Assembly: GCA_933228675.1 (NCBI GenBank)
Contig: OW121741.1
Span: 58,430,651-58,494,650 of the forward strand
Origin: Stomorhina lunata
Lineage: Eukaryota; Arthropoda; Insecta; Diptera; Rhiniidae
Direction of reading: 5' to 3'
DNA length: 64,000 nucleotides
Each line of letters starts with the position of its first letter. The stretch's first letter is position 1. The notes under the pieces were generated by a model. The model was not told where the DNA came from. It saw only the letters and a list, made by a program, of their open reading frames with translations, and searched no databases. The position numbers and the translations under genes are program-made. Below are positions 1-58,860 of the stretch, piece by piece.

Positions 1-1320
1 GGATATATCGGCGTATGTGTAATATCATCCGTAGTTTATATGCCTAACGTAAGAATGTATTGGAATGGTGCATTTGGACTTGACATTGTAAAAAAAACGA
101 TGACTGTTAAACGATTTGAAAAAATTCGTTCGTGTTTACACTTTAGTGATAATTCGTTGCAAACAAATGATAAACTTCAAAAACTAAGACCTGTTATCGA
201 TATTCTTACTGAAAATTTTTTATCGGTACCTATGGAAGAAATGCTTTCCGTTGACGAACAAATTTGTTCTACAAAAGCTCGTCATCACCTAAAGCAGTAT
301 ATGCCGATGAAACCGTATAAATGGGGATTCAAACTATTTGTTTTATCAGGAAGTTCAGGCTTTTGCTACAAATTTGAAATTTATACAGGAACAGAAAATG
401 ACCCCATTAAAAGACTTCCAGGTGACCCTGATCTTGGTGCCAGTTCAAATGTGGTAGTGCGTTTATCCAAAGAAGTTCCGGATGATTGTTATTACAAAAT
501 ATACTTTGACAACTATTATACGTCTATTCCCTTAATAGACTACTTGGCTAAAAGAGGTATACACTCATTAGGTACTGTGAGAAGAAATAGAGTACCATCG
601 TGTAAAATGCCCAAGGATTCCAACGTAGAGTTTAAAAAAATGGATAGAGGAGGAACTATGGAATTTCTGACAAAATTCAACGGCACCACGGTATCTAACA
701 CTTTGTGGAAAGATAACAAAATGGTTCTAATGTTATCCTCATTTGTTGGAACAGAACCCACACAAATGGTTCAACGATACGATCGAAAAAAGAAGCAGTC
801 TATTAAAATTCCTTGCCCAGCTGTTATAAAACAGTATAACAAACATATGGGGGGCGTAGATTTGTTAGATAGTCTAGTTGGTAGATATCATATAAAGATG
901 AGATCACGCAAATGGTATATACGTTTATTCTACCATCTAATAGATGTAGCCGTAATAAATTCATGGCTTTTATATAAAAGATCAAAGCAAGGAAAATCAA
1001 ACATGAAGTTAATGGACTTTCGGATGGAATTAGCCAACACGTTGTGCCAAATTGATTTAAATGCTGCTCCTAAGCGTGGAAGACCTTCAGAACACCAAAT
1101 TAATATTGAAGTAAAAAGAATGAAACCCAATACTGCTCCCATTCCTCCTTTAGATGTACGTCGTGACAACGTCAGCCATTTTCCAACATTTAGTGATACT
1201 CGAATTCGATGCAAGTATCCGAATTGCACAGGACAAACTTTTACTCTATGTCGAAAATGTAATACTGCTTTATGCTTAAATAAAGAGAGAAATTGTTTTG
1301 TAGCATTTCATTCATTATAA
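1..1320 (+). CDS. piggyBac-family transposase, 5' partial
   Basis: DDE-type cut-and-paste transposase of the piggyBac superfamily (DDE_Tnp_1_7). The frame is open to base 1, so the true start lies off the window; the first ATG at 40 is internal. Counting from that ATG, the three catalytic aspartates are visible: D72 in SVDEQ, D157 in YFDNYY and D274 in GGVD. A cysteine-rich C-terminal cross-brace finger occupies residues 391-424 (C391, C396, C404, C407, C412, C419, H424). No internal stop or frameshift is seen, so this copy could be functional if the missing N-terminus is intact. It is followed by about 235 bp of 3' sequence ending in GGG-TTAA, as expected for this family. A domesticated piggyBac-derived gene is possible but less likely because the TTAA boundary is visible. 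Confidence 0.93.
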   Translation, partial: GYIGVCVISSVVYMPNVRMYWNGAFGLDIVKKTMTVKRFEKIRSCLHFSDNSLQTNDKLQKLRPVIDILTENFLSVPMEEMLSVDEQICSTKARHHLKQYMPMKPYKWGFKLFVLSGSSGFCYKFEIYTGTENDPIKRLPGDPDLGASSNVVVRLSKEVPDDCYYKIYFDNYYTSIPLIDYLAKRGIHSLGTVRRNRVPSCKMPKDSNVEFKKMDRGGTMEFLTKFNGTTVSNTLWKDNKMVLMLSSFVGTEPTQMVQRYDRKKKQSIKIPCPAVIKQYNKHMGGVDLLDSLVGRYHIKMRSRKWYIRLFYHLIDVAVINSWLLYKRSKQGKSNMKLMDFRMELANTLCQIDLNAAPKRGRPSEHQINIEVKRMKPNTAPIPPLDVRRDNVSHFPTFSDTRIRCKYPNCTGQTFTLCRKCNTALCLNKERNCFVAFHSL

Positions 1321-28744: not shown

Positions 28745-29400
28745 CACATAGTTTGCATAGTTTACAGTTTAACTCATTTTAATAATTTTGGAAATTCGTC
28801 ATACCAGCAGAAAGCTCCGTCGACTCATGCGCAACATCTTTGCTAAAGATTATAGTCTGATCAAATGCACAGTTTACGATTTAATTCATTTTGAGTAGCT
28901 TTCAGTGGTGCCACCTGAAGTTGTTCATACCAGCTAAGAAACCTTTGTCTGCTTATGCGTAACAACTTTGCTTATGATTATAACATGATCAAACGCACAG
29001 TTTACGATTTAATTCTCTTTGAGTAATTTTCTGTGGCGCCAAATGTCGGACTTTGCTCATTCCAATTCATAAACCTTCTTCGGCTTATCCGTAACAACTT
29101 TGCTGAAGATTATAGCATGATTAAATGTATAGCTTACGATTAAATTGACTTTGAGTAATTTTCAGTAGCGCCACCTGTCGGAAATTATTCATTACCAAAT
29201 AAAAAGCCTTCGCCGGCTCATGCGCTACAACTTTGCTAAAGATCATAGCATGATCAAATGTACAGTTTACGATTTAATTAATTTTTAGTAATTTTCAGTG
29301 GCGCCATCTAACGGAAATTAGTCTTACCAACTTAAAAACCTTCGCCGGCTTATCCGCAAACATCTTCGCTGAAGAGCATAACATGATCAAAATCACAATT
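28745..29400. repeat. Tandem array, five ~131-bp units
   Basis: The phase marker CAGTTTACGATTTAATT (or close variants) occurs at about 28759, 28871, 29000, 29131, 29264 and 29395. Each unit also holds AACAACTTTGCT, TATAGCATGATCAAA, GTAATTTTCAGTGGCGCCA and AACCTTCGCCGGCTTAT. The spacing is 129-133 bp except for the shortened first unit. More GC-rich than its surroundings. Not coding. Confidence 0.85.
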
Positions 29401-29439
29401 TACTATTCTATAAAGAACATACATACAATATTCCTTTCA

Positions 29440-33688: not shown

Positions 33689-36600
33689 GATATTTAGATA
33701 GATATTTATTTATTTATTGATATCACATACAACAAGATATTTATCTTATAAATTACAGTATGTGATGTTATAATGATTACATGAATAAATGTTTAAAATC
33801 ATGACAAAAATGGTAAAATTAAAATTATAAAATTATGAATATTTAAAGCAAATATTAAAATTAATTTGGATATTAAAATAAAGCAAGACTACATAAATTA
33901 AAAGTGTATTTAACGATAAAATTGAAACAATTTTTCTTTAAATAGTGATGCATTGCCTATTAATTGTATATTTAAGGGTAATAAGTTCCAAAGACGTATA
34001 GAGTTTATTAAAAATTGCCATTCTGATATCAAACTGCGATGTCTTGGTAATATTATTTTCAGTCCTCTGTTTGATCTGGCAAATCTGAAGCGGTTGAATA
34101 AATAAGCTGGAGATTTTAAGTATATTATTTTGTGAAGCAGAACTAAAGTTTTGATTTTCAGCAAGTCGCCAATACTGACCCCAAACAACGATTTCGCAAA
34201 CGAAGATGTACTTTCATATCTTTTTACGCCATAAACATATCGTAGGGTGGCATTGTAAGCTTTAGTTAGTTTGTTTTTGCTTATGCTATCGGTACTACTG
34301 AAGATTTCACAACCATATAAAAGTTTAGGAATAATGTAAGTTTTCGCTAGTAGTTCCCGAATGTGCCTAGGCGTTACGTATTGGGTTGGATATAAGGTTC
34401 TCAGCATACCGAATAAACATCCTGTAGCGATGTTTATATGGGAATTCCACTTTAGCTCCGTGTTGAATGTTATTCCAAGATTCTTAGTAGATTCAACAAT
34501 ATCAATAGGTTCATCAGCTAATGATATAGGGTTACCTACGAGAGTGGTATCTAAAAGAATGCGCTGTGTTTTTTTTTTGAAATTCCGATAAGCTTTGATT
34601 TTTTAGGATTAAGATGTAGTCCATTTTCACAAGCACAATTGGAAACTCTACTCAGGTCCTCATTTGCCAAAGCTATGCAATGATTGATTTGTTCCTTTTG
34701 ACAACTTATATATAATTGGACATCATCAGCGTATATATGAATCTTACAGTGTAAGAGGTTAGCAGGAAGATCGTTGATATATAATGTAAACAGGAGAGGC
34801 CCAAGTATAGATCCCTGAGGTACACCTTTTTTTACAGGCATCGGTGTTGACAGTAGTTCTCCAATACTTACGGATTGACTGCGACCGGAAAGATAGGAGC
34901 TTATTAAGATTGTAGCAGAGCTTGAGAAAAAGAATTTTTGGTTAAGCTTTCGGCAAAGAACTTCATGATTAACGCAATCAAATGCTTTGGAATGATCGAG
35001 CAGTATAAGAAGAGTTACAAGACCATTATCTAATTCAGATCGTATTTCCTCAGAGACATTTATCAAGGCAGTAACACAACTGTGTTTTGGTCTAAATCCA
35101 GATTGATGGATATTTAATAAGGAAAATCTGTCCACATAATTAAAGATTTGTTGATGTAGTACTCGTTCAAAAACTTTAGAGAGATATGGCAAAATTGCAA
35201 TAGGGCGATACTCAAGCGCTGATTTCGGTACAGGTATAATTTTTGCATATTTCCAACAGTTAGGATAAATGCTTTTAGTAATAATAATGTTAAATATGTG
35301 TGTTATGTGATTTAGCAAAAACGGTAGTAATAACTTTAAAAATTTAGGGTTCATGCCATCAGAACCAATAGCGTTCGATTTGACAGATAAGCAGCTTGAA
35401 AGAACATCTGTTGTAGATATGCATTCAAAAACAAATTGTCGAGGACCTTGTTGTACATCATAAGATGTTAATAGGATGGAATTATTTGAGTTTAGTACCG
35501 ACGGAATTAGTGTTGTAGGCGTATCTATAAAACTACGATTTAATCTTTCAATATCAATGTCCTTATTTGCATATTTTGGTTTACTTCCAATCCCAATCTC
35601 CTTAATTATCTGCCATTTTTTCTTTGAACCAGCTGCAGTCGCAAAACGAGATGCATAGTACTCAGACTTAGATTTTCTAATACACTTGTTTGCGTTTCGA
35701 CGACGAGAACGAAATTCTTCGTATAGTTCAACTGTACGATAACGTTTCCAGCGCGCATATACTTCATCTCGAAGGTTTATCAAAGATTTTATTTTGTTAT
35801 TAAACCAACACTCGCTACTAGTTTTATTTTTCCGACAAGTACGAATTGGAACAGAACGCTCAAATATTTGAGATATATTGCTGTTTAAAAAACGTAGCTG
35901 ATCATCTGGCGAAGCCATATAGTAGATATCATCCCAGTTAGTTTCACAAACAAATGAGTTTAAAGTGTTGAAGTCAATGTTGCGAAAATCGCGATATGTG
36001 GGTGTTGCATTATTTTGATCTTCTGTTATAAATTCGTAAGACAGGAAGATTAGGTCATGTTTTGAAAAACAGGATGCACTAAGTTGATCAAAAAGGAGAA
36101 CATTGTCGGTATTACTAACGATAAATATGTCAAGCAAGCTACTGTTGGTAGTAGTGAAATGCGTCGGATTGATGTTGTTTACTATGTACAAGCCAATGCT
36201 CATCAAGGAATTCTGTAACTCATTATGGGATAAGATGTTCGAGTTGAAATCACTAGCTATTACGACATCCGAGTATTGAACAGATAAAAGTTCATATGGT
36301 ATATTTTTGTTAGGTCGATAAACACAACCAATCAATATTTTTTTATTGCACTGATCAATTTCAATAAATATGTGTTCAATCTGTTCATTAGCTTCAGATT
36401 TACAGACTACCTTGTAGCGAATATTTTGTTTGACATATATAGCAACTCCACCACCAAACGTTAATCTGTCATTACGTATTAATTTAAACCCAGATGTTAT
36501 AAAAAGACTATCAGGAATAAGCACGTTAAACCAAGTTTCGGTTACACAGATTATGTCGGTATTTGAATCCTCAAACAGGTACTTAAATTCATCCATCTTA

Positions 36601-36877
36601 TTTGATAGACTTTGCGCGTTTATATGACATATATTGAGACCTTTGCGCTGTTTTGAAAGTATGCGAATCAAACTTCTATTCCCTGTATTATACACAGTAG
36701 ACATATTTAAGTGAAAAAAGGCAATGCAGTTTATAGGATTTGTTACTTTGTTTGGTGAGTTTTTTTGTTTCAAATTTAATGTGAGTGTTCGACATAGGTA
36801 AGTTAATAATAAAAAGATTAGAGATCATTAATGTATTGCTAAGGTATTTGGCAATAAGTACATAAATTAGAGAAAAA
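33689..36877 (-). mobile_element. CR1-group LINE, near-intact ORF2
   Basis: 3.19-kb non-LTR element on the minus strand, inserted into family A with a short TAATA repeat at each side (33684-33688 and 36878-36882). Its 3' tail is an AATAAATAAATA run rather than poly(A). The 5' end lies about 100 bp before ORF2, so ORF1 is absent, by truncation or by family design. Confidence 0.82.
33910..36773 (-). pseudogene. LINE ORF2: endonuclease-reverse transcriptase, one frameshift
   Basis: Open from 36773 (740 codons to 34551), then continues in another frame to TAA near 33910. Endonuclease residues ~45-255: NICHINAQSLSNK, CVTETWF, VIASDFNSN, LLDIFIVSN, SKHDLIFL. RT residues ~500-735: YRPIAILPYLSKVFERVL, LILLDHSKAFDCVNH, KGVPQGSILGPLLF, and YADD at 681-684. 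The break is in a run of ten adenines (34569-34578, shown as T on the plus strand). Losing one base there explains it; downstream LLDTTLVGNPISLADEP and the C-terminal RLWNLLP block follow without further stops. No RNase H. Clade: CR1/L2-like by block style. Confidence 0.88.
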
Positions 36878-46929: not shown

Positions 46930-49253
46930 TTATTTATGTTCCACATGTAGATGATATCCACATTTGAAAAACCTTTGAGAATGAGTTTTGATAATGATTT
47001 GAGAATAAAGGCATTTCTCAATTTGAGAATAAAGACCCTTTTTGTTGAGAACGCTATTATTCTTTATTTGAAAAAAGATTTATTTTCAAACAGAGGTTCG
47101 AAAGGCTCAATTCCTAATTCCATATTTTAAAATCAAATTTATTTTAGTGTTTATATCATTTCCATAATACATTCACCTGAATCAAGTCATAAGCCTTAAC
47201 TTTTAAGAATTAATTCTTAGGGAATTTAAAATCAGTTAGATTTAATTTAAATTATTTCAATTCTTAATCTTATACAAAAATAATTAAAAATTTTATAAAC
47301 AAATCATTTTGTAAAGGCATACAAAAATAAATGTATTCAAACGAACCCTACAGTTCCAAAATATATAATACCTATAAAAGAGCGGAATAAAATAAATCTC
47401 AACGAAACAAGTCCTTAACCATAAAATAAGTTTCAGGATTGCATTAGGGATTAAATATCATTTAATACCCATGAAAAAAAGTCCCCATTTTAGAGGATAA
47501 AGAAATTACTCTTTCTTAAGTTATTGGGTTAAAAAAGGGTTTTTAAGCTGAGATGATTTCCATCTCGATTTTAACAAAACCGTGGACTTGGTTTGTCTAA
47601 AAAACATGTATGAAAAGTCATATGATTAAAATGTGATTTATTCATTTTACATTTACATATTACATTTTCTAATTGTACTCAATTTTGTAATTTTATTCTA
47701 ATTCCATCATAATTGTGTATGTATCTCAGCTATGTAATATATCTTCCTGCTAAGGGACTGATGTTTTTTAGAGACTGCAGGGCATATACAAATAACATTT
47801 TTGTAGAAAAATTCAAAAATTTATTAAGTTGACTTAGGCGAAATTTAAAAAAATAAAGAAATTATAAAACTGAAAAATGTTTGTGTGTTTCTGTTCGGAT
47901 GATAATCTTCGCTTTATGTTGATATTTGTTGGACACAATAATAATAATTCGTATTTATTCAAGCCCTCAAATTATACATAATGTGAGGTTTTCGCTCTGT
48001 CTAGAATTAGGGATAATCCTCCTGATGAGATGGTCTAACCAACCATCGAAACGCGTCGAGGAAAGGTTTCCCCACCAACATTTTTTGGTTTTATCAAAAA
48101 ACTATTTATTACAATAATAAATAATTGTAATAAATTGGGATTCTTAGTGCAATACACTACAGTAAAACTTTTTAAAAAAATCTTTGTTATTGGTCATAAG
48201 ATCAGAAAAACTATTTAAAATAAAATATAGATATGTGTATCTATATTTAAATTTTTTGTACACATAATCTATAATCTCATCCAGATTCGAAAACATATAA
48301 AATTCATTATTTCGCAGCAACACAACTAAACCAGAGATAATATACTCTTACATATTAGCACATTTTACATGTATATGTATGTATTTACAAAAACTAATGT
48401 CACAAAAAACAAATTATTTTTATAAATTTTTTTAGAAAAAAATTTTAATTAAGCAGATTCCTTCACTGATTGAATTTCTGGTAAAGATTAGGTCATTATA
48501 AACGAAAGACCATTAATATTACTATATTCCTGCATATCTAAATATCTTTTAAAAGTTATAGTTTAACAAATAAATGCAAAATATACACAAGTTTGCGGTG
48601 AAATAGCCACATTAGGGTAGTTCCGTTTTGTTGAACGAACATTAAAGAATACATGCATACTTTTATTAAATGTGTATGCTTTCTGATAAAACATAAGAAT
48701 ATTTTAATAGGTTATGATAAATTTTGTTCTATTTTATATCTAGGGTTTTTACAAACAATGTATATCGCACTTGATCCAATAATACCCTATAAATTAAAAC
48801 TTCAATTTTCGTTTTTTGGTTTGATATACTTTTATTCAATGAGTGGTATAGTTTAAAAAACTTTTCCCTCGAAAAAGTCAGAATTTAAGTTTTTGATTTA
48901 AAATCAAGTATCTTTAGTTTATATCCACCCTAATGATTTGCACAAAATGAATTACCAAAAAATATTTTAATTCAATTTGGACTGGTTTTAATTAAGAATA
49001 AAAAATGTTAATTCAAATTGGAGTAGAGGAATGAAGAAACATTTTATTCATTCAAGTTGATTTTAAATTCCCATGTGAATCAATTCACTAAGAATTAAAA
49101 ATCAACACATTTTTTTAATTGTTTTATGGGAATTAAACTTAAGGTATTGTTAAATCATTTTTGAATTCCTAGGAATTAAGCTAATATTTAATTAAGCCTT
49201 TCGAAGCTCTGTTTTCAAATCACCCTCAATTTGAGAATAAACCTTTTTTCTTA
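46930..49253. mobile_element. Element E (long inverted repeats), non-coding
   Basis: Right end ...TTTTTTCTTACTGGG followed by TAGTTATTC of a copia LTR. Inverted subterminal match: TTTCAAACAGAGGTTCGAAAGGCT on the left (~47090) against its inverted copy on the right (~49195-49218). TTTGAGAATAA recurs near both ends. The left end is not clearly defined. The interior (47110-49190) has no credible ORF but contains a hammerhead ribozyme at 48017. Confidence 0.5.
48017..48062 (+). ncRNA. Hammerhead ribozyme, type I (Penelope-like-element style)
   Basis: All invariant core positions are present in order. Helix I: TCCTC (48017-48021) pairs with GAGGA (48058-48062), five base pairs. Core CTGATGA is at 48022-48028. 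Helix II is GATGGT (48029-48034) with ACCATC (48042-48047), six base pairs and a 7-nt loop. GAAA is at 48048-48051. Helix III is minimal (A48051-T48056, C48052-G48055). The nucleotide before the predicted cut is C48057, giving the preferred GUC triplet. A very short helix III and the GAAACGCGTC string are typical of ribozymes in Penelope-like retroelements, which act in pairs. No Penelope RT or GIY-YIG frame was found beside it, so this may be an isolated pseudo-LTR fragment. Confidence 0.75.
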
Positions 49254-49562: not shown

Positions 49563-52500
49563 TTATCTAAGCCAACTGAGTCCGAGTATGAACCCAACAA
49601 CGTCAGTCAGCTCGCACTGCTGTATGTCGCCTAGTTCATCAAGAAATCTGTTACCTAGGAATTTAAGTCTCTTGTTTTGGAGCATAGGACAGTGGCAGAG
49701 GATATGCTCAACCGTTTCGGATGAATCCGCGTCCGAGCATAGTCTGCAAATGTCCTGAATTGCTCCATCCCATCTGTTTAGCCTGGAGTTTAGGGCACAG
49801 TGGCCAGTTAGAAAACCTATACATTTCCTGAGACTGGTTCTGCTAAGACCTAGCAGTAGCTTAGTCTTGCGTATATCCAAGTCGGGCCATAAGGTCCTAG
49901 ATATCGTGCAAGTGGCCAAGTTGTGCCAGTTCCTAGCTGTTTCCTCACCGATCCAGGACTTGATGCCCATAAAAAGGTGACAAATAGGTGGGGCTATCTC
50001 TGTCACCGCGGACAACAGTTCCTGACTCGAGCCAAGTCTAGCGACTTCGTCAGCAGTTTCGTTGCCTTCGATGTCGCAATGACCAGGAACCCAGCAGAGT
50101 CTTACCCTATAAGTATTAGAAAGGCTAATGATAGCTAATCTACAAGACTTTACTAGTTTTGAGGTGATGCTACATCCTTCTAGGGCTTTGAGGGCAGCCT
50201 GACTATCGACGTAGATGGTCACCTCGCTATCTACAGGAATATTATGTGAGATAAGTTCAGTGGCTTTCAGGATGGCGAAAATTTCCGCCTGAAACACACT
50301 GCACTCATCTCTAAGCCTGTAGGATTTCCTAATGTTTTGCTCCTTTAAGAAAACACCCGCCCCAGTGCCGATTTCCATTTTAGAACCATCTGTGAAGATC
50401 GAGTTCCCCTCAAAGAGGGATTGACGATTATCCCAGCTGGTTCTATCAGGAATGACGACCTCTGGTGCTGAACTGAACAACAGTTCCTTGACAACGTAAT
50501 CAGATACAGTTGAACCTGACTCGAAGTGAGGGACGATCATTCGGTTCAGTATGCTAGTGTGTCCTACCTGCCTGTGCCTAAGTATACCCGACTCATGTAG
50601 CCTCAATAGACATCTAGTTGCTGTTCCCTTTATAAATATATCTAAAGGGAAAAGAGACAGCATCACGTCTAGGGCCGCCTGAGGAGTGCTCCTTAGGGCA
50701 CCAGTGATACCTATGCTGCTGCATCTTTGTACTTTGTTCAATAGACTGAGAAAGGAGACTTTGTTTACTGCCTGCCACCATACTGCGCACCCGTAGGTCA
50801 GAACTGGTCTTACAATGGTCGTGTATATCCAGTACACTACCATTGGGTTTAAGCCCCAGCTCTTACCCACAGAATTCCTACAGAAGTAGTAAGCATTAAG
50901 TCCCTTTTTCATTCTCTCAAGCGTGTTTTTCTTCCAAGATAACTTCCTATCCAGAATGATTCCTAGGAATTTAGCTTCTAAAGAAAGACCTAACTCTATC
51001 CCATTAAGTACTGGAAGTTTGAAATTATCAACCTTGTACCTCCTGGTGAATAGGACTAGCTCTGTCTTTTCAGGGTTGACCCCCAGTCCTTTGTCACTGG
51101 CCCAGGAGGAGAGGTCACCTAGTGCCGATTCCATAATTTCGCTGATTGTATTCAGATATTTACCTGATACCAGTATAACTACATCGTCAGCGTAGGCGAC
51201 AATCTTCCTGCCTAGTTGATCAAATTTTTTAAGGATGACATTGATCGCCAGTAGCCAAAGTAAAGGAGACAACACCCCCCCCCCTGTGGAGTACCTCTTG
51301 TGACCATTCTACGAGTGTTGCAGTCTCCTAGACTGGAGTTGATTATCCTGCTGTTCAGCATGATTGTTATCCACTCCACCAGAAAACCCTGCACACCCGC
51401 GTCTATGAGTGCTTTCTTAATGGCGTCAGTCGTGATATTGTTGAAAGCTCCCTCGATATCTAGAAAAGCTGCCAGTGTATAATCCTTGAAATCCAGCCCT
51501 TTTTCGATAAAACCAACCACATCATGAAGTGCACTCTCGACAGATTTACCCTTTAGGTAAGCATGTTGAGCGGTACTTATGATATGTGTTTCTAACGAGT
51601 TCCTAAGATAAAGGTCAATCAGTCGCTCTAGTGTCTTCAGAAGAAAAGACGATAGGCTGATCGGCCTGAAATCTTTTGGTTTTGAGTGACTAGCCTTCCC
51701 TGCCTTTGGTATAAAGATCACCCTAACCTCTCTCCATCCACCTGGAATGAAACCTCCAAGTAGACAGCTAACGAAAATGGAACGAAGAATTAATAGACAA
51801 TAGTCGGAGGAATTTTGGAGCATGGCAGGGATAATGCCATCTGGACCTGCCGATTTATACGGCATGAACGTGTTCACGGCCCATTTGATTCTCTCCATAG
51901 TGACAATCCTATCTATCAGACTATTCGTTTCTGCGTCCGATTCTACCAAAATTGATGTATTCAAGACAGGATTCGAGATCATGTTGCCTGGGAAATGAGT
52001 GTCAATGAGCAGATCGAGTGTCTCTAGGTTCGATTCCGTCCACGAGCCGTCCGACTTCTGGATGAAACTAGGAACCACTGGGTTCCTGGATAACATCCGT
52101 CTAAATCTTGACAGCTCGTTCACTGAATCGATGGACTCGCAGTAGCTTTGCCACGTGGTCTGTTTGGCCCTTCTGAGATCGCTCTTATATCTGTTGAAAG
52201 CCTCTTTATACCTAGACCAATCCTCATCCGAGTGAGTGAGTTTGGCCTTATTGAACAACCTCCTGACTTTAGTTCTGAGATCTCTAAGATCCGTAGACCA
52301 CCATCTAGGTTGTTTGCGTTTACCCGGGAAGGTTAAAGGACAGCTTTCATGGTAGCTGTCCATGTAACTTTTGCTGAGTACTGACACCAGGGCATTGCAT
52401 TCCTCCTGAGTGTAAACACCCAGGGGGATACTCTCTGTCCTGGTATCAAGGAGCCTGCTAAAGTTTACCCAGTTAGTTTTCCTGGGATTCCTAAAGGGTT

Positions 52501-53233
52501 CTCTTTTAACCTTATTGAAATTCACAGTAAAGGAAATCAAGCAATGATCCGAGAAGGAGCATTCGCTTGATACCCTCCACTTCTCAATGAGGTTATCCCT
52601 ACTATTAGTCAGCGTTAAGTCTATCACTTCTTCTCTATCTTTCACCCTGAAAGTTGGCATATTGCCCGTATTACAGATAAAAAGATTGTTAGTAGTGATA
52701 AAATCAAAAACTGACTCACCTCTTACATTTATATTACTGCTGCCCCATTGGTAATGATGTGCGTTGGCGTCGCAACCCAGGACTAGGGGTGTTTTTTTGT
52801 CCATGGACTCCACCAGATGGCGGACATCACTACCCGGCGGGTCTTCTGCCTCGTACGGTAGGTATGCTGAAGCCAATGCGAAGATTACCTTCCCTTTGAC
52901 CTCCTTTGCGACAACTGTGAGATCGCCATTGCTGTAGGAATTAAAGAATTGTAAATTAAGTTCACTTTTAGCTAAAATGCATGTTCTTACCTTGTCGCCC
53001 GTACTTGGTGTATATAAATTGTAGCCTGTGACCTTTAGTCCGCATACCTTGTTTCCGCGGATCCAAGGCTCCTGGACTAAGGCCACATCTACATTAGAAT
53101 CGACAAGAAGTCTTGTCATTTCGGCTGAAGCTGCTTCACAGTGGTGTAGATTCAACTGCACCACCAGCAGCTTCTTTGGTTCCCCCCTGTTTAGAATATC
53201 TAAACTTGACGGCACCAATACCGAATTTGACAA
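49563..53233 (-). pseudogene. LINE ORF2: endonuclease-RT-RNase H, one frameshift
   Basis: First part 53233-51212: endonuclease (VVQLNLHHCEAAS, VALVQEPWI, GCDANAHHYQWGS, SFSDHCLISF), then RT fingers (FRPISLSSFLLKTLERLI, AAFLDIEGAFNNI, VTRGTPQGG). The frame breaks in a run of ten C/G at 51275-51284. Second part 51275-49563 (570 codons): YADD at residues 28-31. RNase H shows its four acidic residues D296 (FTDGS), E331, D357 (YVDSQ) and D409 (NETADE). A C-terminal CX2C...H...C finger lies at residues ~510-529. Terminal stop TAA at 49563-49565. A single homopolymer slip is the only lesion seen. The frame opens without an ATG ahead of the endonuclease, so translation may couple to ORF1. Confidence 0.9.
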
Positions 53234-54960
53234 TACCTCTTGCCGATTCTATTTTCTTGAAGGATTCCAAATCCACGGAAAATTTGAAATCCTTCCCCTT
53301 ACCCTCCTTACAACTTGTGGAAGATATAACCTTCCACTCCGTTGTAAGGAAATCATTCGTTTCTGCAAAGCAGACAGTATGGTTTCCGTGGACCTAACAG
53401 GGTTAGGGAACCATACCGACAGAACACTTCTTAAGGGTAACCTGGAGGCTTCTACCACATCGAGTTTGGCGGACGGACAGAGGTCGCTGCAGCCGCCAAC
53501 CACAGTTTTTAGGAATTCGTACGATTTCCTATTACTGCAGTTGACAATCTTCACTCCCCTCCGCCATTCCGCACCCTCGAAGGATATGGCCTCCTTGGAA
53601 CCCTCAAAAAGGCCAATGTCATCAATGATCCGAGCTTCAATCAGCTCCCATAGACCACTCTTGATCCTGCTGTAGGGATCGTTGTGATCAATGACAGCTG
53701 CTTGAAGTGTATCAAGGCTCACTGACTTCTTGACCTTTTTGCTAGTAGAGGGTTGCTCATCACTAGACCTAGCCCTCTTGGCGCTAACCTTTCGGTTACA
53801 TGCCTGGGGATCTAGGGATTTGCCGCCCTCTGTCACCTTACCCGCTTTCACAGAACCAGTAACGGTTTTGTCGGCGGCAGGCTTGTTCGGTTCCGCCTTG
53901 CGAGATTTGGCTGTTTCCGCCACAGTCACCACGGGGGTGGCTGTGGATTCAACGGCGATCCCTCGCCTGGCGCAAGCAGAGGAGATACCAAGAAGCTCCA
54001 GGGTGGGGCCGTAAGTTTTTTCAAACTTAATGACACTCTGCCTGTGCCTCTTAGTCATCTTCCTCTCCTTAGGCTTGAGCAGCGTAGGATCTCTATTGGC
54101 CATCCTTTTGAGATAGGCCAAAGAGTTCTTTGTGCCACTTTTCGCCTTATCAAATTTCGTTCGACAGGTTGACTGTGGCGGAGAGACCTCCACAGCATCC
54201 TGTCGAGCGAGCTGTCCTTTCGAGGAGAGTGGGCCTTCCAGAGGTGGATCCTCCTGAGCCACCAGCTCCTCCGAACTAGCAGACGCTGATGTGGATCCCG
54301 CAGATTCCTGAGCGGAAGTCGAGACCTTATCGGTGACGACTACCCTATCAGGAGTCGACGGTACCACATCCGCTACTTGCTTGGTTCCGGCGGATATGAT
54401 GGGTTCAGTCTGATCCAACTGCTCTTCCTTTCCTACCCCAAGTGCACCGCACCGGTTCCCTTCCTCCTCTAAATCAAGAGGCGTCGGAACTGATTTGGGT
54501 GGACTCTGGCTGGTCGAGGCCTTTACAGCCTCTTCCTCCAGGGAACCACCCAAAATCTTCTCCGTGTCCTGTTCGGATTCAGCTGAGCTGGAAACTGATC
54601 TATTCCTTGAGGTAGCCCCCTCCACCTTTTCCCGAGTTACTGAAGGAGATCCCGCTTGAGTTAGTTCTGAAGCTGAGATCACCGTGATCTCACCTTCAGA
54701 GTCAGACTCAAGCGTGATGTCCGCCAGTGACAGTGGCTCCGGTGGAGAGGGAGGAATCCAGTAGGACCTCTGTCGCTCCCACTATTTCCTCTAGGTCCGT
54801 CAGTAATTGTCTCTCCTGACGGAGAATGTCCGAGTCTATGTCACTTAAAGTCAGTACGTCAATATCGTCTTTCCCTACCGTGTCCCGTCTAACCCTGAAG
54901 CTATCCTCCAGGGAGGTCTCGTTCTTGTCCGTGTCGATTTGTTTTTTTATTTTTTTTTTT
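53136..54960 (-). pseudogene. LINE ORF1 with DUF4780-like C-terminal domain
   Basis: The central frame 54682-53249 (477 codons) starts at a GTG, and the frame extends ~100 nt further to a TAG, with no ATG. Upstream acidic sequence (SLEDSFRVRRDTVGKDD ... LTDLEEIVGATEVL) lies in another frame, so a shift sits at ~54770. The N-terminal half is a low-complexity Ser/Glu/Thr/Pro region and the middle is basic (ERKMTKRHRQS, SKKVKK). The C-terminal ~150 residues (EFEGAEWRRGVKIVNCSN-like, SVWFPNPV, LQKRMISLQRSGRLY) resemble DUF4780, an arthropod retrotransposon domain. A second shift at ~53310 moves the end (KFGIGAVKF) to another frame, which stops at 53136. No CCHC knuckle found. Confidence 0.75.
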
Positions 54961-55535: not shown

Positions 55536-56180
55536 ATGGAAAAAGTTATAAATATTGAAAAGCTTACTGGGAGAGAGAATTACCATCAATGGAAATTCAC
55601 AGTGGAAAAACGCCATGAAGTTGCAGGGCTATTAGAATTCTATATATATATTCTATATATTTCGTCAAGCCTGTATGTTCACATTCAAGATGAAACTAAG
55701 GCCAAATGTATTTGGGTCAAACTAAAAGCCATGTACGATGATTCGTGGTTGGCACGTCGTTGCGGCTTGCTTAGGAAATTAACAACAACTCAGCTGGTAA
55801 ACTTTCAAAATGTTAGTGAGTACGTTAACACAATAATTAATACAGCGCCCAAGTTAACCCAAATTGGAATGGCGGTGAACGAGCAGTGGGTCGGGAGTTT
55901 GCTATTAAGTGGTCTACCTGATCATTTTGCTCCAATGATAATGGTCATTGAAAGTAGCAACATAAAAGTGACCGCTGACACCATAAAAACAAAATTATTA
56001 CAGGATTTTGATACATATAATTTTTCGTCAGAAGAATCAGCATTTTATGGTATGTTCTAAACCAAAAAACAATGTGAAAAAACAAAGAAGTTCGTGTGCT
56101 TCAATTGCAAAAAGGAGGGCCATATAACCAAATATTGTAAAGCGCCGAAACGAAGACAAATGGCGGGAACAGCGAATAGA
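55536..56180 (+). pseudogene. copia gag with CCHC knuckle
   Basis: ATG 55536 opens a 174-codon frame. It has the copia N-terminus (IEKLTGRENYHQWKFTVE), then LVNFQNVSEYVNTIINTA and LLLSGLPDHFAPMIM, the UBN2-type gag. It ends TAA at 56058-56060. The zinc knuckle CFNCKKEGHITKYC (CX2CX4HX4C) follows at 56097-56138, after the stop. A compressed segment near residue 30-50 suggests a small internal deletion. Confidence 0.85.
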
Positions 56181-58860
56181 CATTGGCGGCAAGTTTTATG
56201 GCAAAGTTTGAGAATAACTGGTTAATCGATTCAGGTTCAACAGCCCATATGGTAAATGACAAAAATTTGTTTGTGAACTTCAAACTGTGTGAAGAACAGC
56301 AGTATATAAAATAAAATAAAAGTCTTAAAGTCACTGGTAAAGGAACTATTCGTTTACAACAAATGTTAAACAACAAAAGAGTACATAAATATAGAAAAAA
56401 TTTAATTTCAGTAAGCCAACTAACTAAAAAAGGTTTCCAATTTATTTTTAAAGGTGATCAGTGTAGTGTCAAAAAGGACGGTCTACTTTTCTTAAGAGCT
56501 TTTTTGAATAATGGGATGTTTACACCTAATTTTAAAAAAATACAACAAAACTTTTTAGTTACTAGTAAAGCGATTTGGCACAAACGACTTGGTCATCCTG
56601 GTGACAAAAAATTGAGTGTCTGGTTTCCAAAAAAGTGTTAAGCTTTGATGACAATAGCGTGGAATCACGTGCTTGCAGTTCATGTTTGCAAGGTAAACAG
56701 TGCCGTTCGTCTTATAAGTCAACAACAAATCGTACATACAGACGTGTGTGGTCCAATGAAAGAGAGGTCTATGGGTGGAGCTGTTTACTATGTGTTATTT
56801 CTTGATGATTATTCTGGTAAATTTTTTGTGGAAGTTATGAAAAATAAGTCCGAAGTGTCAAAATTATTTGAGAATTTTAAAAACAGGTAGATAATCAGAC
56901 CGGTAAAAGAATTAAAATACTTCGTTCAATGTTATTTGATGCGAATTTAAAGAAGTTTTATTGGGCTGAATCTGTAAGTACCGCTGCATATTTGTTGAAT
57001 TTATTGGCAAAGAAGGCTATAAATGACAAATCCCCTCAAGAAGTTTGGACGGGTAAGGCTCAAACTGTGAATCATTTGTGTGTATTCGGTTGTGTTGGAA
57101 TTTTGTTCATACCCAAAGAGCTCCGGCAAAAATGGGATGCAAAGTCCAAGAAGTGTTTTATGGTATGGTATAGTCAAAATACAAAAGCCTACAGAATGTA
57201 TGATCCTGTAAAGAAAAGGATACACGTAAGTCGCAATGTAAAATTTTTAGAAAACCAAAATCCCATAAGTGCTTCATCGCCCATATGTGATCAAGAAGTA
57301 GCAAGGATAATAGATGACACCCAAGACTCAGATGTTTTTTGCGAAGAAATTTAGGAAGTTCAATCTCAGTCAGATGAAAAGTCTACGCACGATAATAATG
57401 AGTAGCGAACACAGTTACAAGAAGAAGAAGCAACACCCCATCGTTTTTCTAGAAAAAGAAAACCTTCAAATAAGCCTGATTTTTCCAATGCTAGTTCTGA
57501 TGATCCCAACAATTTTAATGAAGCAATTTAGATAAAAATCGATGGCTTAAAGCCATTCAAAGTGAAACCAATTCTCTTTTGGAAAACAATAAGTGGAGTG
57601 TTGCGAAAGATAGTCAACATATAAGAAAATTGTCTACAAAATGCGTCTTTAGAAAGAAAAGTGAAGAAGGGGGTACGAGATATAAGGCAAGATTAGTTGC
57701 CAGAGGTTTTGCGCGACATGCTGGTGTTGATTACACGGAAACGTACTCGCCCGTAATGAGATATAATACGCTAAGATTTTATTAACAGTAGCTTTGGAAT
57801 ACGATTTGCAAATAAACCATTTGCATGTATGCACAGTATTTCTTCAAGGTAATCTTAACAATGAAATTTATATCGAAGTTCCTGAAGGTATAAGTGTACC
57901 AGAAGGTCATGTTTTGAATTTGAAAATAAGCCACTTTACGGTTTAAAACAAGCGTCGAGAATGTGGAACGAGAAGTTAAACCAAAAACTAAAAAGTCTTG
58001 GCATAAGACAATTGAAGACAGACCAGTGTGTTCACATAATATATGAAAATACTGATGACGTTATTATTATTGCTGTATACGTGGATGATCTTATTGTTTT
58101 ATGGAAAAATGAAAACGTGAAAAACTTGTTGGTTAAAAGGTTGAGTTTAAAATGAAAGACCTTGGTCAGGCTAAACAATTTCTCGGAATGAGAATTACTT
58201 ACAACCCAGGAAAAGATATATCCATAGCTCAAACTTCACACATAGAAACTTTATTAGAAAGGTTTGACATGCTTTCATGTAATCCAGTTTCTCCTATTCG
58301 CCGCTCAGGTCACCCGACCAAACATCAGTTTTGCCGTAAATCTAAGCCGCTTTAATAACAACTTCAGTATGCAACATTGGATAGCTGCTAAACTAATTCT
58401 ACGTTATTGCAAACTTACTTTTGAGAAAAATTCCAGTTTTGAAACTACATGGTTTAGTGATGCAGATTATGCCGCAGATCCGGAAGAATGGAAGTCAGTA
58501 AGCGGATATGTGTTCATAAAGAAAGGCGGTGCAATATCGTAGGGTGAAGCTGAATACGTGGCTATGGGTTTGGCAGTGCAGGAATTACTCTGGTTACTAG
58601 GCCTGGAAGAAGAGCTGCTCAACAAATTCTTGTGTCCAACAATACTTTGTTGCGATAATCAAAGTGCCATTCAACTAACTTAATGAGTGCTATCATGCAA
58701 AAACAAAACACATCGATGTGAGAAATCACTTTATTAGAGACACATACTCGCAAAAGGTTTAACATTAAAATTTGTAAGCTCAACTGTTATGGTAGCAGAT
58801 ATTTTTACCAAGCCACTTTGCAAAGTTCAGATTAAAGATTTTATAAACAGTATGTTCTTT
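56181..58860 (+). pseudogene. copia pol: protease, integrase (core deleted), RT, RNase H
   Basis: Protease WLIDSGSTAHMV (56219-56254). Integrase N-terminal HHCC piece WHKRLGHPGD (~56577-56606); first catalytic region HTDVCGPM (~56740). The segment that should hold the second Asp and the Glu is missing between RIKILRS and MLFDANLKKFYWAE (~56925). RT: KARLVARGFARHAGVDYTETYSPV (57685-57755), a stop after NTLRFY, QASRMWNEKLNQKLK, and YVDD (58078-58089). RNase H: DADYAADPEEWKSVSGYVF, then a stop within the usual GEAEYVA motif (58540-58560), CCDNQSAIQLT, and KHIDVRNHFIRDTY. At least seven lesions. Confidence 0.88.

What the first reader, a model, noticed from the sequence alone, without database searches (positions are those of the whole stretch)
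48017..48062. Complete type-I hammerhead ribozyme in a non-coding element
Every core position is present (CTGATGA, GAAA, C before the cut). Helix I is 5 bp and helix II 6 bp without mismatch, and helix III is the minimal form seen in Penelope-like elements. The chance of all parts aligning within 46 nt is very low. No Penelope coding sequence lies nearby, so this may be an orphan pseudo-LTR or a ribozyme recruited by element E.
Basis: partly seen in the sequence, partly recalled or inferred. Interest (0 to 1): 0.87.

Follow-up and report, generated by a model that had tools for sequence, protein, structure and literature searches.

The report
Penelope-style mobile element carrying hammerhead ribozyme
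The RNA-cutting hammerhead motif is real, and it belongs to a small, gene-less mobile element with many copies in this genome whose insertions look as if made by the enzymes of Penelope retroelements.

Summary
A complete minimal type-I hammerhead (HHR) lies at 48017-48062 (+). Its 31-nt core matches 1151 places in the 728-Mb host genome, 0 for the reversed pattern. It is not an orphan: it sits in a ~320-bp copy (about 47855-48170, flanked by an 11-bp direct repeat) of an interspersed element with a 488-bp tandem unit, 31% GC and no long ORF. That copy lies inside a 2.1-kb inverted-repeat host element (47080-49214) that multiplied with it.

Sampled insertions carry Penelope-like element (PLE) marks: two alternative 3' ends 40 nt apart, ~118 and ~157 nt after the cut; 5' truncation; short AT-rich target duplications; head-to-head pairs but no tail-to-tail pairs. 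In 18 of 21 typed pairs one end is short and one long, as in the known PLE "tail". A 12-bp hairpin between ribozyme and ends covaries. ACGCGU could give a dimeric ribozyme a 6-bp helix III.

Best reading: a retrozyme-like, non-autonomous element moved in trans by a PLE. The PLE itself was not sought successfully (tool unanswered). None of 60 single insertions starts at the cut, so cleaved linear RNA is probably not the usual template. Cleavage is untested.

The parts
48017..48062 (+). Minimal type-I hammerhead; predicted cut between 48057 and 48058
   Evidence: 31-nt core 1151 times genome-wide
48010..48072 (+). Hammerhead with possible outer helix I (GGGA 48010-48013 / TCCC 48069-48072) and internal loop
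   Evidence: Direct reading; energy of explicit folds
48051..48056 (+). Palindrome ACGCGT, possible 6-bp helix III of a dimeric ribozyme
   Evidence: kept in 96 of 108 motif copies in fetched loci (loci were picked by the core motif)
48104..48135 (+). 12-bp hairpin with loop AATAAATA, between ribozyme and 3' ends
   Evidence: covariation score 0.295 vs shuffled 0.161; but number of pairs with two-sided change not above shuffles
48168..48173 (+). CTTTTT at site A, the 3' end of this copy
47855..48170 (+). Window copy of the retrozyme-like element (unit 282 to about 118); BLAST match 47851-48186 at 97.6%
   Evidence: edges set by the direct repeat, ambiguous by a few bases
47844..47854 (+). Left copy of TTTAAAAAAAT, presumed target duplication
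   Evidence: this 11-mer occurs 11 times in the window, so it is weak evidence alone
48171..48181 (+). Right copy of TTTAAAAAAAT, overlapping the T run of site A
47080..49214 (.). Host element E, repeated with the insertion inside it
   Evidence: Six fetched loci match it at 95-98%
47082..47112 (+). Left terminal inverted repeat of E
   Evidence: 31 nt, 87% complementary to 49190-49220
49190..49220 (-). Right terminal inverted repeat of E

Best explanation
The HHR is the ribozyme of a retrozyme-like, non-autonomous retroelement (488-bp tandem unit, no long ORF) copied and inserted in trans by a Penelope-like reverse transcriptase/endonuclease. SHOWN on sampled copies: two alternative 3' ends 40 nt apart downstream of the HHR; variable 5' truncation; short AT-rich target duplications; head-to-head pairs mostly with one short and one long end, no tail-to-tail pairs; partial and full tandem copies; a covarying hairpin upstream of the ends. 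INFERRED: a PLE protein recognises this region, nicks AT-rich DNA on both strands, and starts reverse transcription at site A on one strand and site B on the other; the two cDNAs are joined at their 5' ends, giving head-to-head pairs inside one target duplication. INFERRED: the ribozyme cleaves when two copies on a multimeric transcript pair through ACGCGU; the usual template is uncleaved (or recircularised) RNA. The window copy ends at site A and inserted into host element E before E multiplied.
For: 3' ends of 60 single-orientation insertions: A 27, B 31, other 2; CTTTTT at unit 111 and 151. 21 distinct head-to-head loci, 0 tail-to-tail in the same sample; 14 of the 17 with both ends at tail positions are A/B, plus L055 and L093 retyped by eye and L107, L116: 18 of 21, about half expected (P = .0021 for 16/19; about .0007 for 18/21 by my arithmetic). 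Shared flank strings mean 7.5 vs 5.8 in shuffled flanks, n = 81, also around whole pairs. Hairpin covariation 0.295 vs 0.161. Literature: in an anole PLE two internal RT start sites 30-40 nt apart define the tail, both strands are cut and extended, AT-rich targets, ribozyme mutants still insert (PMC11167929); in Adineta PLEs the tail is optional on one of the inverted pLTRs, head-to-head is most frequent, TSD 8-10 bp (PMC3846280 passages). Dimer: double-hammerhead fold -41.7 vs cofold MFE -44.6; monomer ribozyme fold -11.1 vs MFE -19.4 kcal/mol.
Against: No autonomous PLE was found here: every GIY-YIG search of the genome did not complete. [quoted passage not shown] L069 is A/A, L036 and L081 have both ends past A, L018, L094 and L109 have an end at neither site, L099 is unresolved; the list holds one divergent A/A pair not fetched. 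L107/L116 come from a sample chosen by A ends. Sample is the first 71.5 Mb of one contig. The hairpin's count of pairs with two-sided change (4) and of pair types (9) does not exceed shuffles (130/500 and 478/500 reach it).
Confidence: 0.75

Rival explanations
1. The copies are 5'-truncated pseudo-LTR fragments of an autonomous PLE of this genome, not a separate element.
For: PLE insertion marks; most copies are shorter than one unit (50 of 60 single insertions).
Against: The 10 of 60 single insertions longer than a unit continue into the same ORF-less unit, and one locus has a trimer and a dimer of it. In the fetched flanks no PLE-like frame was noticed by eye among the long frames printed (not scanned by profile).
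Confidence: 0.15
2. A canonical metazoan retrozyme that spreads by self-cleaved circular RNA and is inserted by a LINE.
For: Non-coding, low-GC tandem HHR unit, as in PMC7229834; copies longer than one unit fit circular or multimeric templates.
Against: Minimal rather than stable helix III; two 3' ends, tails and head-to-head pairs fit PLEs. None of 60 single 5' ends lies within 5 nt of the cut, though among head-to-head pairs L081 (3), L022 (483) and L048, L015 (8 nt) come near it; 10 of 60 start at unit 280-287, which suggests a fixed RNA start.
Confidence: 0.08
3. The motif is a chance hammerhead look-alike in an ordinary repeat.
For: Rfam score at background; the MFE fold is not the ribozyme.
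Against: Descriptor expectation 0.0024 per window. Subfamily II keeps the motif; five of its copies with a readable core carry CTGAAGA, a change at U7, the core position that tolerates change (recalled).
Confidence: 0.02

Closest known systems
Minimal type-I hammerhead ribozymes of Penelope-like elements
   Same: Open helix I, very short helix III, thought to act as dimers, located just upstream of RT start sites (PMC7761336 and PMC11167929)
   Different: Here in a unit without a long ORF; palindromic ACGCGU helix III noted; activity untested
Penelope-like elements (Penelope/Poseidon type)
   Same: 30-40-bp tail, often on one side of inverted copies, head-to-head and partial tandem copies, short target duplications, AT-rich targets (PMC3846280, PMC11167929)
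   Different: No RT or endonuclease in the unit; partner PLE not identified here
Metazoan non-LTR retrozymes
   Same: Non-coding, low-GC HHR tandem units with dispersed copies (PMC7229834)
   Different: 488 bp against the 150-450 bp reported, minimal rather than canonical helix III, PLE-type ends

Membership tests
Hammerhead ribozyme, type I | Conserved core, three helices, UH at the cut, open helix I | tested here: met
   (helix III only two pairs)
Hammerhead ribozyme, type I | Score above a curated Rfam threshold | tested here: not met
   the tool reports no match at gathering score
Hammerhead ribozyme, type I | Self-cleavage | not testable with these tools
   Needs in vitro transcription
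Metazoan non-LTR retrozyme | Non-coding tandem unit with type-I HHR, low GC | tested here: met
   488-bp unit, GC 31%, longest frame 64 aa (+) / 85 aa (-) in three units
Metazoan non-LTR retrozyme | Canonical HHR with stable helix III, as in most invertebrate retrozymes | tested here: not met
   Two-pair helix III
Metazoan non-LTR retrozyme | Circular RNA of unit length | not testable with these tools
   No RNA data
Penelope-like element | Two 3' ends 30-40 nt apart (optional tail) downstream of an HHR | tested here: met
   A 27, B 31, other 2 of 60
Penelope-like element | Head-to-head copies, tail on one side | tested here: met
   21 distinct head-to-head, 0 tail-to-tail loci; A/B 18 of 21 typed
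Penelope-like element | ORF with RT and (mostly) GIY-YIG endonuclease in the unit | tested here: not met
   so it can only be non-autonomous
Penelope-like element | An autonomous PLE in the same genome with matching 3' region | not tested
   All PF01541 searches unanswered
HHR satellite DNA | Long tandem arrays | tested here: not met
   In the sample, interspersed copies, longest run three units; other parts of the genome not looked at

The most novel reading that the evidence does not exclude
The genomic copies of this ribozyme element record a paired-initiation rule of Penelope retrotransposition: one RNA offers two start sites, A and B, and the two strands of one target each use a different one, giving head-to-head insertions with one tail. 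They would also show that PLE machinery mobilises retrozyme-like elements, and that the ribozyme-cleaved linear RNA is not the usual template.
Probability: 0.45. Interest if true: 0.72.

Novelty: new variant of a known kind. Interest (0 to 1): 0.52.

Why it matters
Thousands of minimal hammerheads are reported scattered in non-coding animal DNA with unknown role (PMC7761336, passages), and PLEs have so far been proposed, not shown, as carriers of metazoan retrozymes (PMC7229834, passages). This family gives insertion-level evidence for that link and a countable handle (A/B pairing) on how PLEs prime both DNA strands. It also sharpens the puzzle of what the ribozyme does if copies are made from uncleaved RNA.

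Tried and rejected
Loose core alone (CTGATGA..GAAA) is expected by chance in the window, so the full descriptor and copy number were used. A repeated GTCC-helix motif (CTGATGACGTCC..GGGACAGAAA) was considered as another HHR and set aside because the pair next to GAAA is not standard; not followed. HHR conservation among young copies was rejected as evidence because copies were picked by the HHR; in diverged segments the HHR differs at 6.9% against 13-36% in the other 30-nt bins with 80 or more bases compared, but BLAST anchoring may favour it and two of those bins overlap the HHR in part. Exact HHR pattern: 0 in the prokaryote and viral collections, uninformative for an animal. L1-type twin priming was considered for the inversions and disfavoured: in 17 of 21 head-to-head loci both outer ends are the element's own 3' ends. 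Sample: 99 of the 100 places listed (one left out by oversight), all on contig C1 below 71.5 Mb, plus L098 and 20 A-end loci; not random over the genome. Rows dropped: L013, L014, L016, L017 (same place as L015) and host-E duplicates L023, L033, L066, L080, L085, L089; also L097. L055 and L093 first counted as not ending at tails and were retyped by eye after subfamily II was seen. The note that subfamily II ends near unit 84 was the end of the BLAST match, not of the element.

Full report
What was claimed and what is there. The hammerhead at 48017-48062 (+) is present as described. Helix I is TCCTC/GAGGA, helix II GATGGT/ACCATC, helix III only two pairs, and C48057 precedes the predicted cut. 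A possible outer helix I (GGGA/TCCC) lies beyond an internal loop, and ACGCGT is a palindrome. Rfam at curated thresholds finds nothing in the window, and permissively only a 15.6-bit Hammerhead_3 match with E = 3.1. A full descriptor gives one hit in the window against 2 in 53 Mb of Markov-1 random sequence, both strands. The monomer's minimum-energy fold is a different structure.

It is a repeat family. In the host genome (728 Mb, 104 contigs) the 31-nt core matches 1151 times, the reversed pattern 0 times. I fetched 99 of the 100 places listed, all on contig C1 below 71.5 Mb, and one variant place, L098. One locus holds a trimer and, inverted to it, a dimer of a 488-bp unit; the two full units compared are identical. 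The unit is 31% GC; its longest stop-to-stop frames in three tandem copies are 64 aa (+) and 85 aa (-). Mapping 91 sequences on the unit shows an interspersed element with variable 5' ends.

Ends. Among 60 single-orientation insertions (11 duplicate loci dropped, HHR core required), the 3' end lies at site A (unit ~118, after the CTTTTT at 111) in 27, at site B (~157, after the CTTTTT at 151) in 31, elsewhere in 2; 10 are longer than a unit; 10 begin at unit 280-287; none begins within 5 nt of the cut. In head-to-head pairs a few 5' ends come near it: L081 (3), L022 (483), L048 (8), L015 (480). The start cluster may be a transcription start; that is inference. Flanks share longer strings than shuffled flanks (mean 7.5 vs 5.8, largest of 20 shuffles 6.35, n = 81), also around whole head-to-head pairs.

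Head-to-head pairs. 25 rows, 21 distinct loci, show two copies joined at their 5' ends; none is tail-to-tail. By unit position 17 have both outer ends at tail sites, 14 of them one A and one B; L069 is A/A, L036 has both ends at or near B, and L081 has one end at B and one between A and B (counted B/B). L055 and L093, wholly or partly of subfamily II, were typed A/B by eye afterwards. L018 and L094 have a left end that is no tail. Twenty further A-end loci gave two more A/B pairs (L107, L116), one with an end past B (L109) and one unresolved inverted array (L099). In total 18 of 21 typed pairs are A/B. From the observed A and B frequencies 0.498 is expected; P(>=16/19) = .0021 and P(>=14/17) = .0060, and about .0007 for 18/21 by my arithmetic. 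The list of 100 A ends also holds one divergent A/A pair within 2 kb (C1:179092818/179094282), not fetched.

RNA structure. A 12-bp hairpin (window 48104-48135) lies between ribozyme and ends. On 17 sequences (11 of subfamily I, 5 of II, 1 other) 93.1% of cells pair, 17 cells change on both sides (shuffled 5.8) and the covariation score is 0.295 against 0.161 in shuffles (0/500), at most 0.103 when slid; but the number of pairs with a two-sided change (4) is reached by 130/500 shuffles and the number of pair types (9) by 478/500. Much of the signal is one set of subfamily-level changes counted in several copies. Subfamily II keeps the ribozyme, in most readable copies with U7 changed. The explicit ribozyme fold of the monomer is -11.1 against an MFE of -19.4 kcal/mol; the double hammerhead with a 6-bp helix III is -41.7 against -44.6. 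In fetched loci 88 of 108 motif copies keep helix I 5/5 and the closing pair of helix II; these loci were mostly picked by the core motif and include host-E duplicates.

The window copy. It spans about 47855-48170, ends at site A, and is flanked by TTTAAAAAAAT on both sides (that 11-mer occurs 11 times in the window). It lies in host element E, 47080-49214, with 31-bp inverted ends. Six fetched loci share E with the same insertion at 95-98% and five more share its left flank. So E apparently carried the ribozyme passively; no empty copy of E was obtained.

Comparison with what is known. For the anole PLE, RT starts at two internal sites whose interval equals the 30-40-bp tail; both DNA strands are cut and extended; targets are AT-rich; ribozyme mutants still insert; no strand difference in start site was seen; the ribozyme needed protein to cleave in that assay (PMC11167929, main-text section; passages). 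In Adineta PLEs the tail is optional on one of the inverted pLTRs, head-to-head is the most frequent arrangement, TSDs are 8-10 bp where given, and one host gene was moved in trans (PMC3846280, passages). Those authors favour self-priming on an antisense template for the inversions, a mechanism my data do not exclude. Metazoan retrozymes are non-coding HHR tandem repeats, with PLEs proposed as mobilisers (PMC7229834, parts 1-2 of 6 and passages). Minimal HHRs are reported mostly as dispersed motifs, some in PLE pLTRs, possibly cleaving as dimers (PMC7761336, passages). Searches for retrozyme + hammerhead + insect, hammerhead ribozyme + Penelope-like, Penelope-like elements + pLTR + insect, retrozyme + Diptera, Penelope + head-to-head + pLTR + tail and hammerhead + Penelope + nonautonomous listed no title on this element or on a counted A/B pairing rule; the library lacks most subscription journals and I read only the papers named.

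Verdict. The element inserts like a PLE and is built like a retrozyme. It fails the autonomous-PLE test (no ORF) and the canonical-retrozyme test (minimal helix III), so I call it a non-autonomous, PLE-type retrozyme variant. The missing piece is the PLE itself: every GIY-YIG search did not complete.

Noticed in passing
window 47080-49214: A 2.1-kb repeat with 31-bp terminal inverted repeats, probably a non-autonomous DNA transposon, that carries the ribozyme element in at least 12 sampled copies.
   Followed up: partly
L093:1331-2479: Head-to-head insertion whose left copy switches from subfamily II to subfamily I sequence, as if the reverse transcriptase had changed templates between two RNAs.
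   Followed up: partly
L099:1-1006: Array of alternating inverted segments of about 185 bp built from the element around the ribozyme.
   Followed up: no
L098:940-1139: Third variant (CTGATGATGATGG) with two ribozyme cores about 106 bp apart.
   Followed up: no
L009-L098, unit position 280-287: Ten of 60 single insertions start at the same place (AAATAAAGAAATG), perhaps an RNA start; a TTTATA lies at unit 231.
   Followed up: partly
L021:1332-1699 and following bases: The 3' tail GATAAACCTTTTT is present twice in a row at the end of this copy.
   Followed up: no
L084:377 and 565; C1:2439374, 2443133, 2443602, 2649236 in the list: Another repeated hammerhead-like string, CTGATGACGTCC..GGGACAGAAA, with a non-standard pair next to GAAA.
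   Followed up: no
flanks of L011, L035, L054, L094: Element copies often sit in or next to A/T-rich repeats of the kind AAAATTTTTCTATAG.
   Followed up: no
window 49563-54682 (-), 34551-36773 (-), 40-1320 (+), 55536-57354 (+): Other mobile elements: a non-LTR element (DUF4780, endonuclease, RT, RNase H in three frames), another RT frame (nearest solved relatives are RNA-directed DNA polymerase and R2 chains), a DDE_Tnp_1_7 transposase, and copia-type gag and polymerase pieces.
   Followed up: partly
window 28827-29407: Tandem repeat of 133 bp, 4.4 copies, 79% matches.
   Followed up: no
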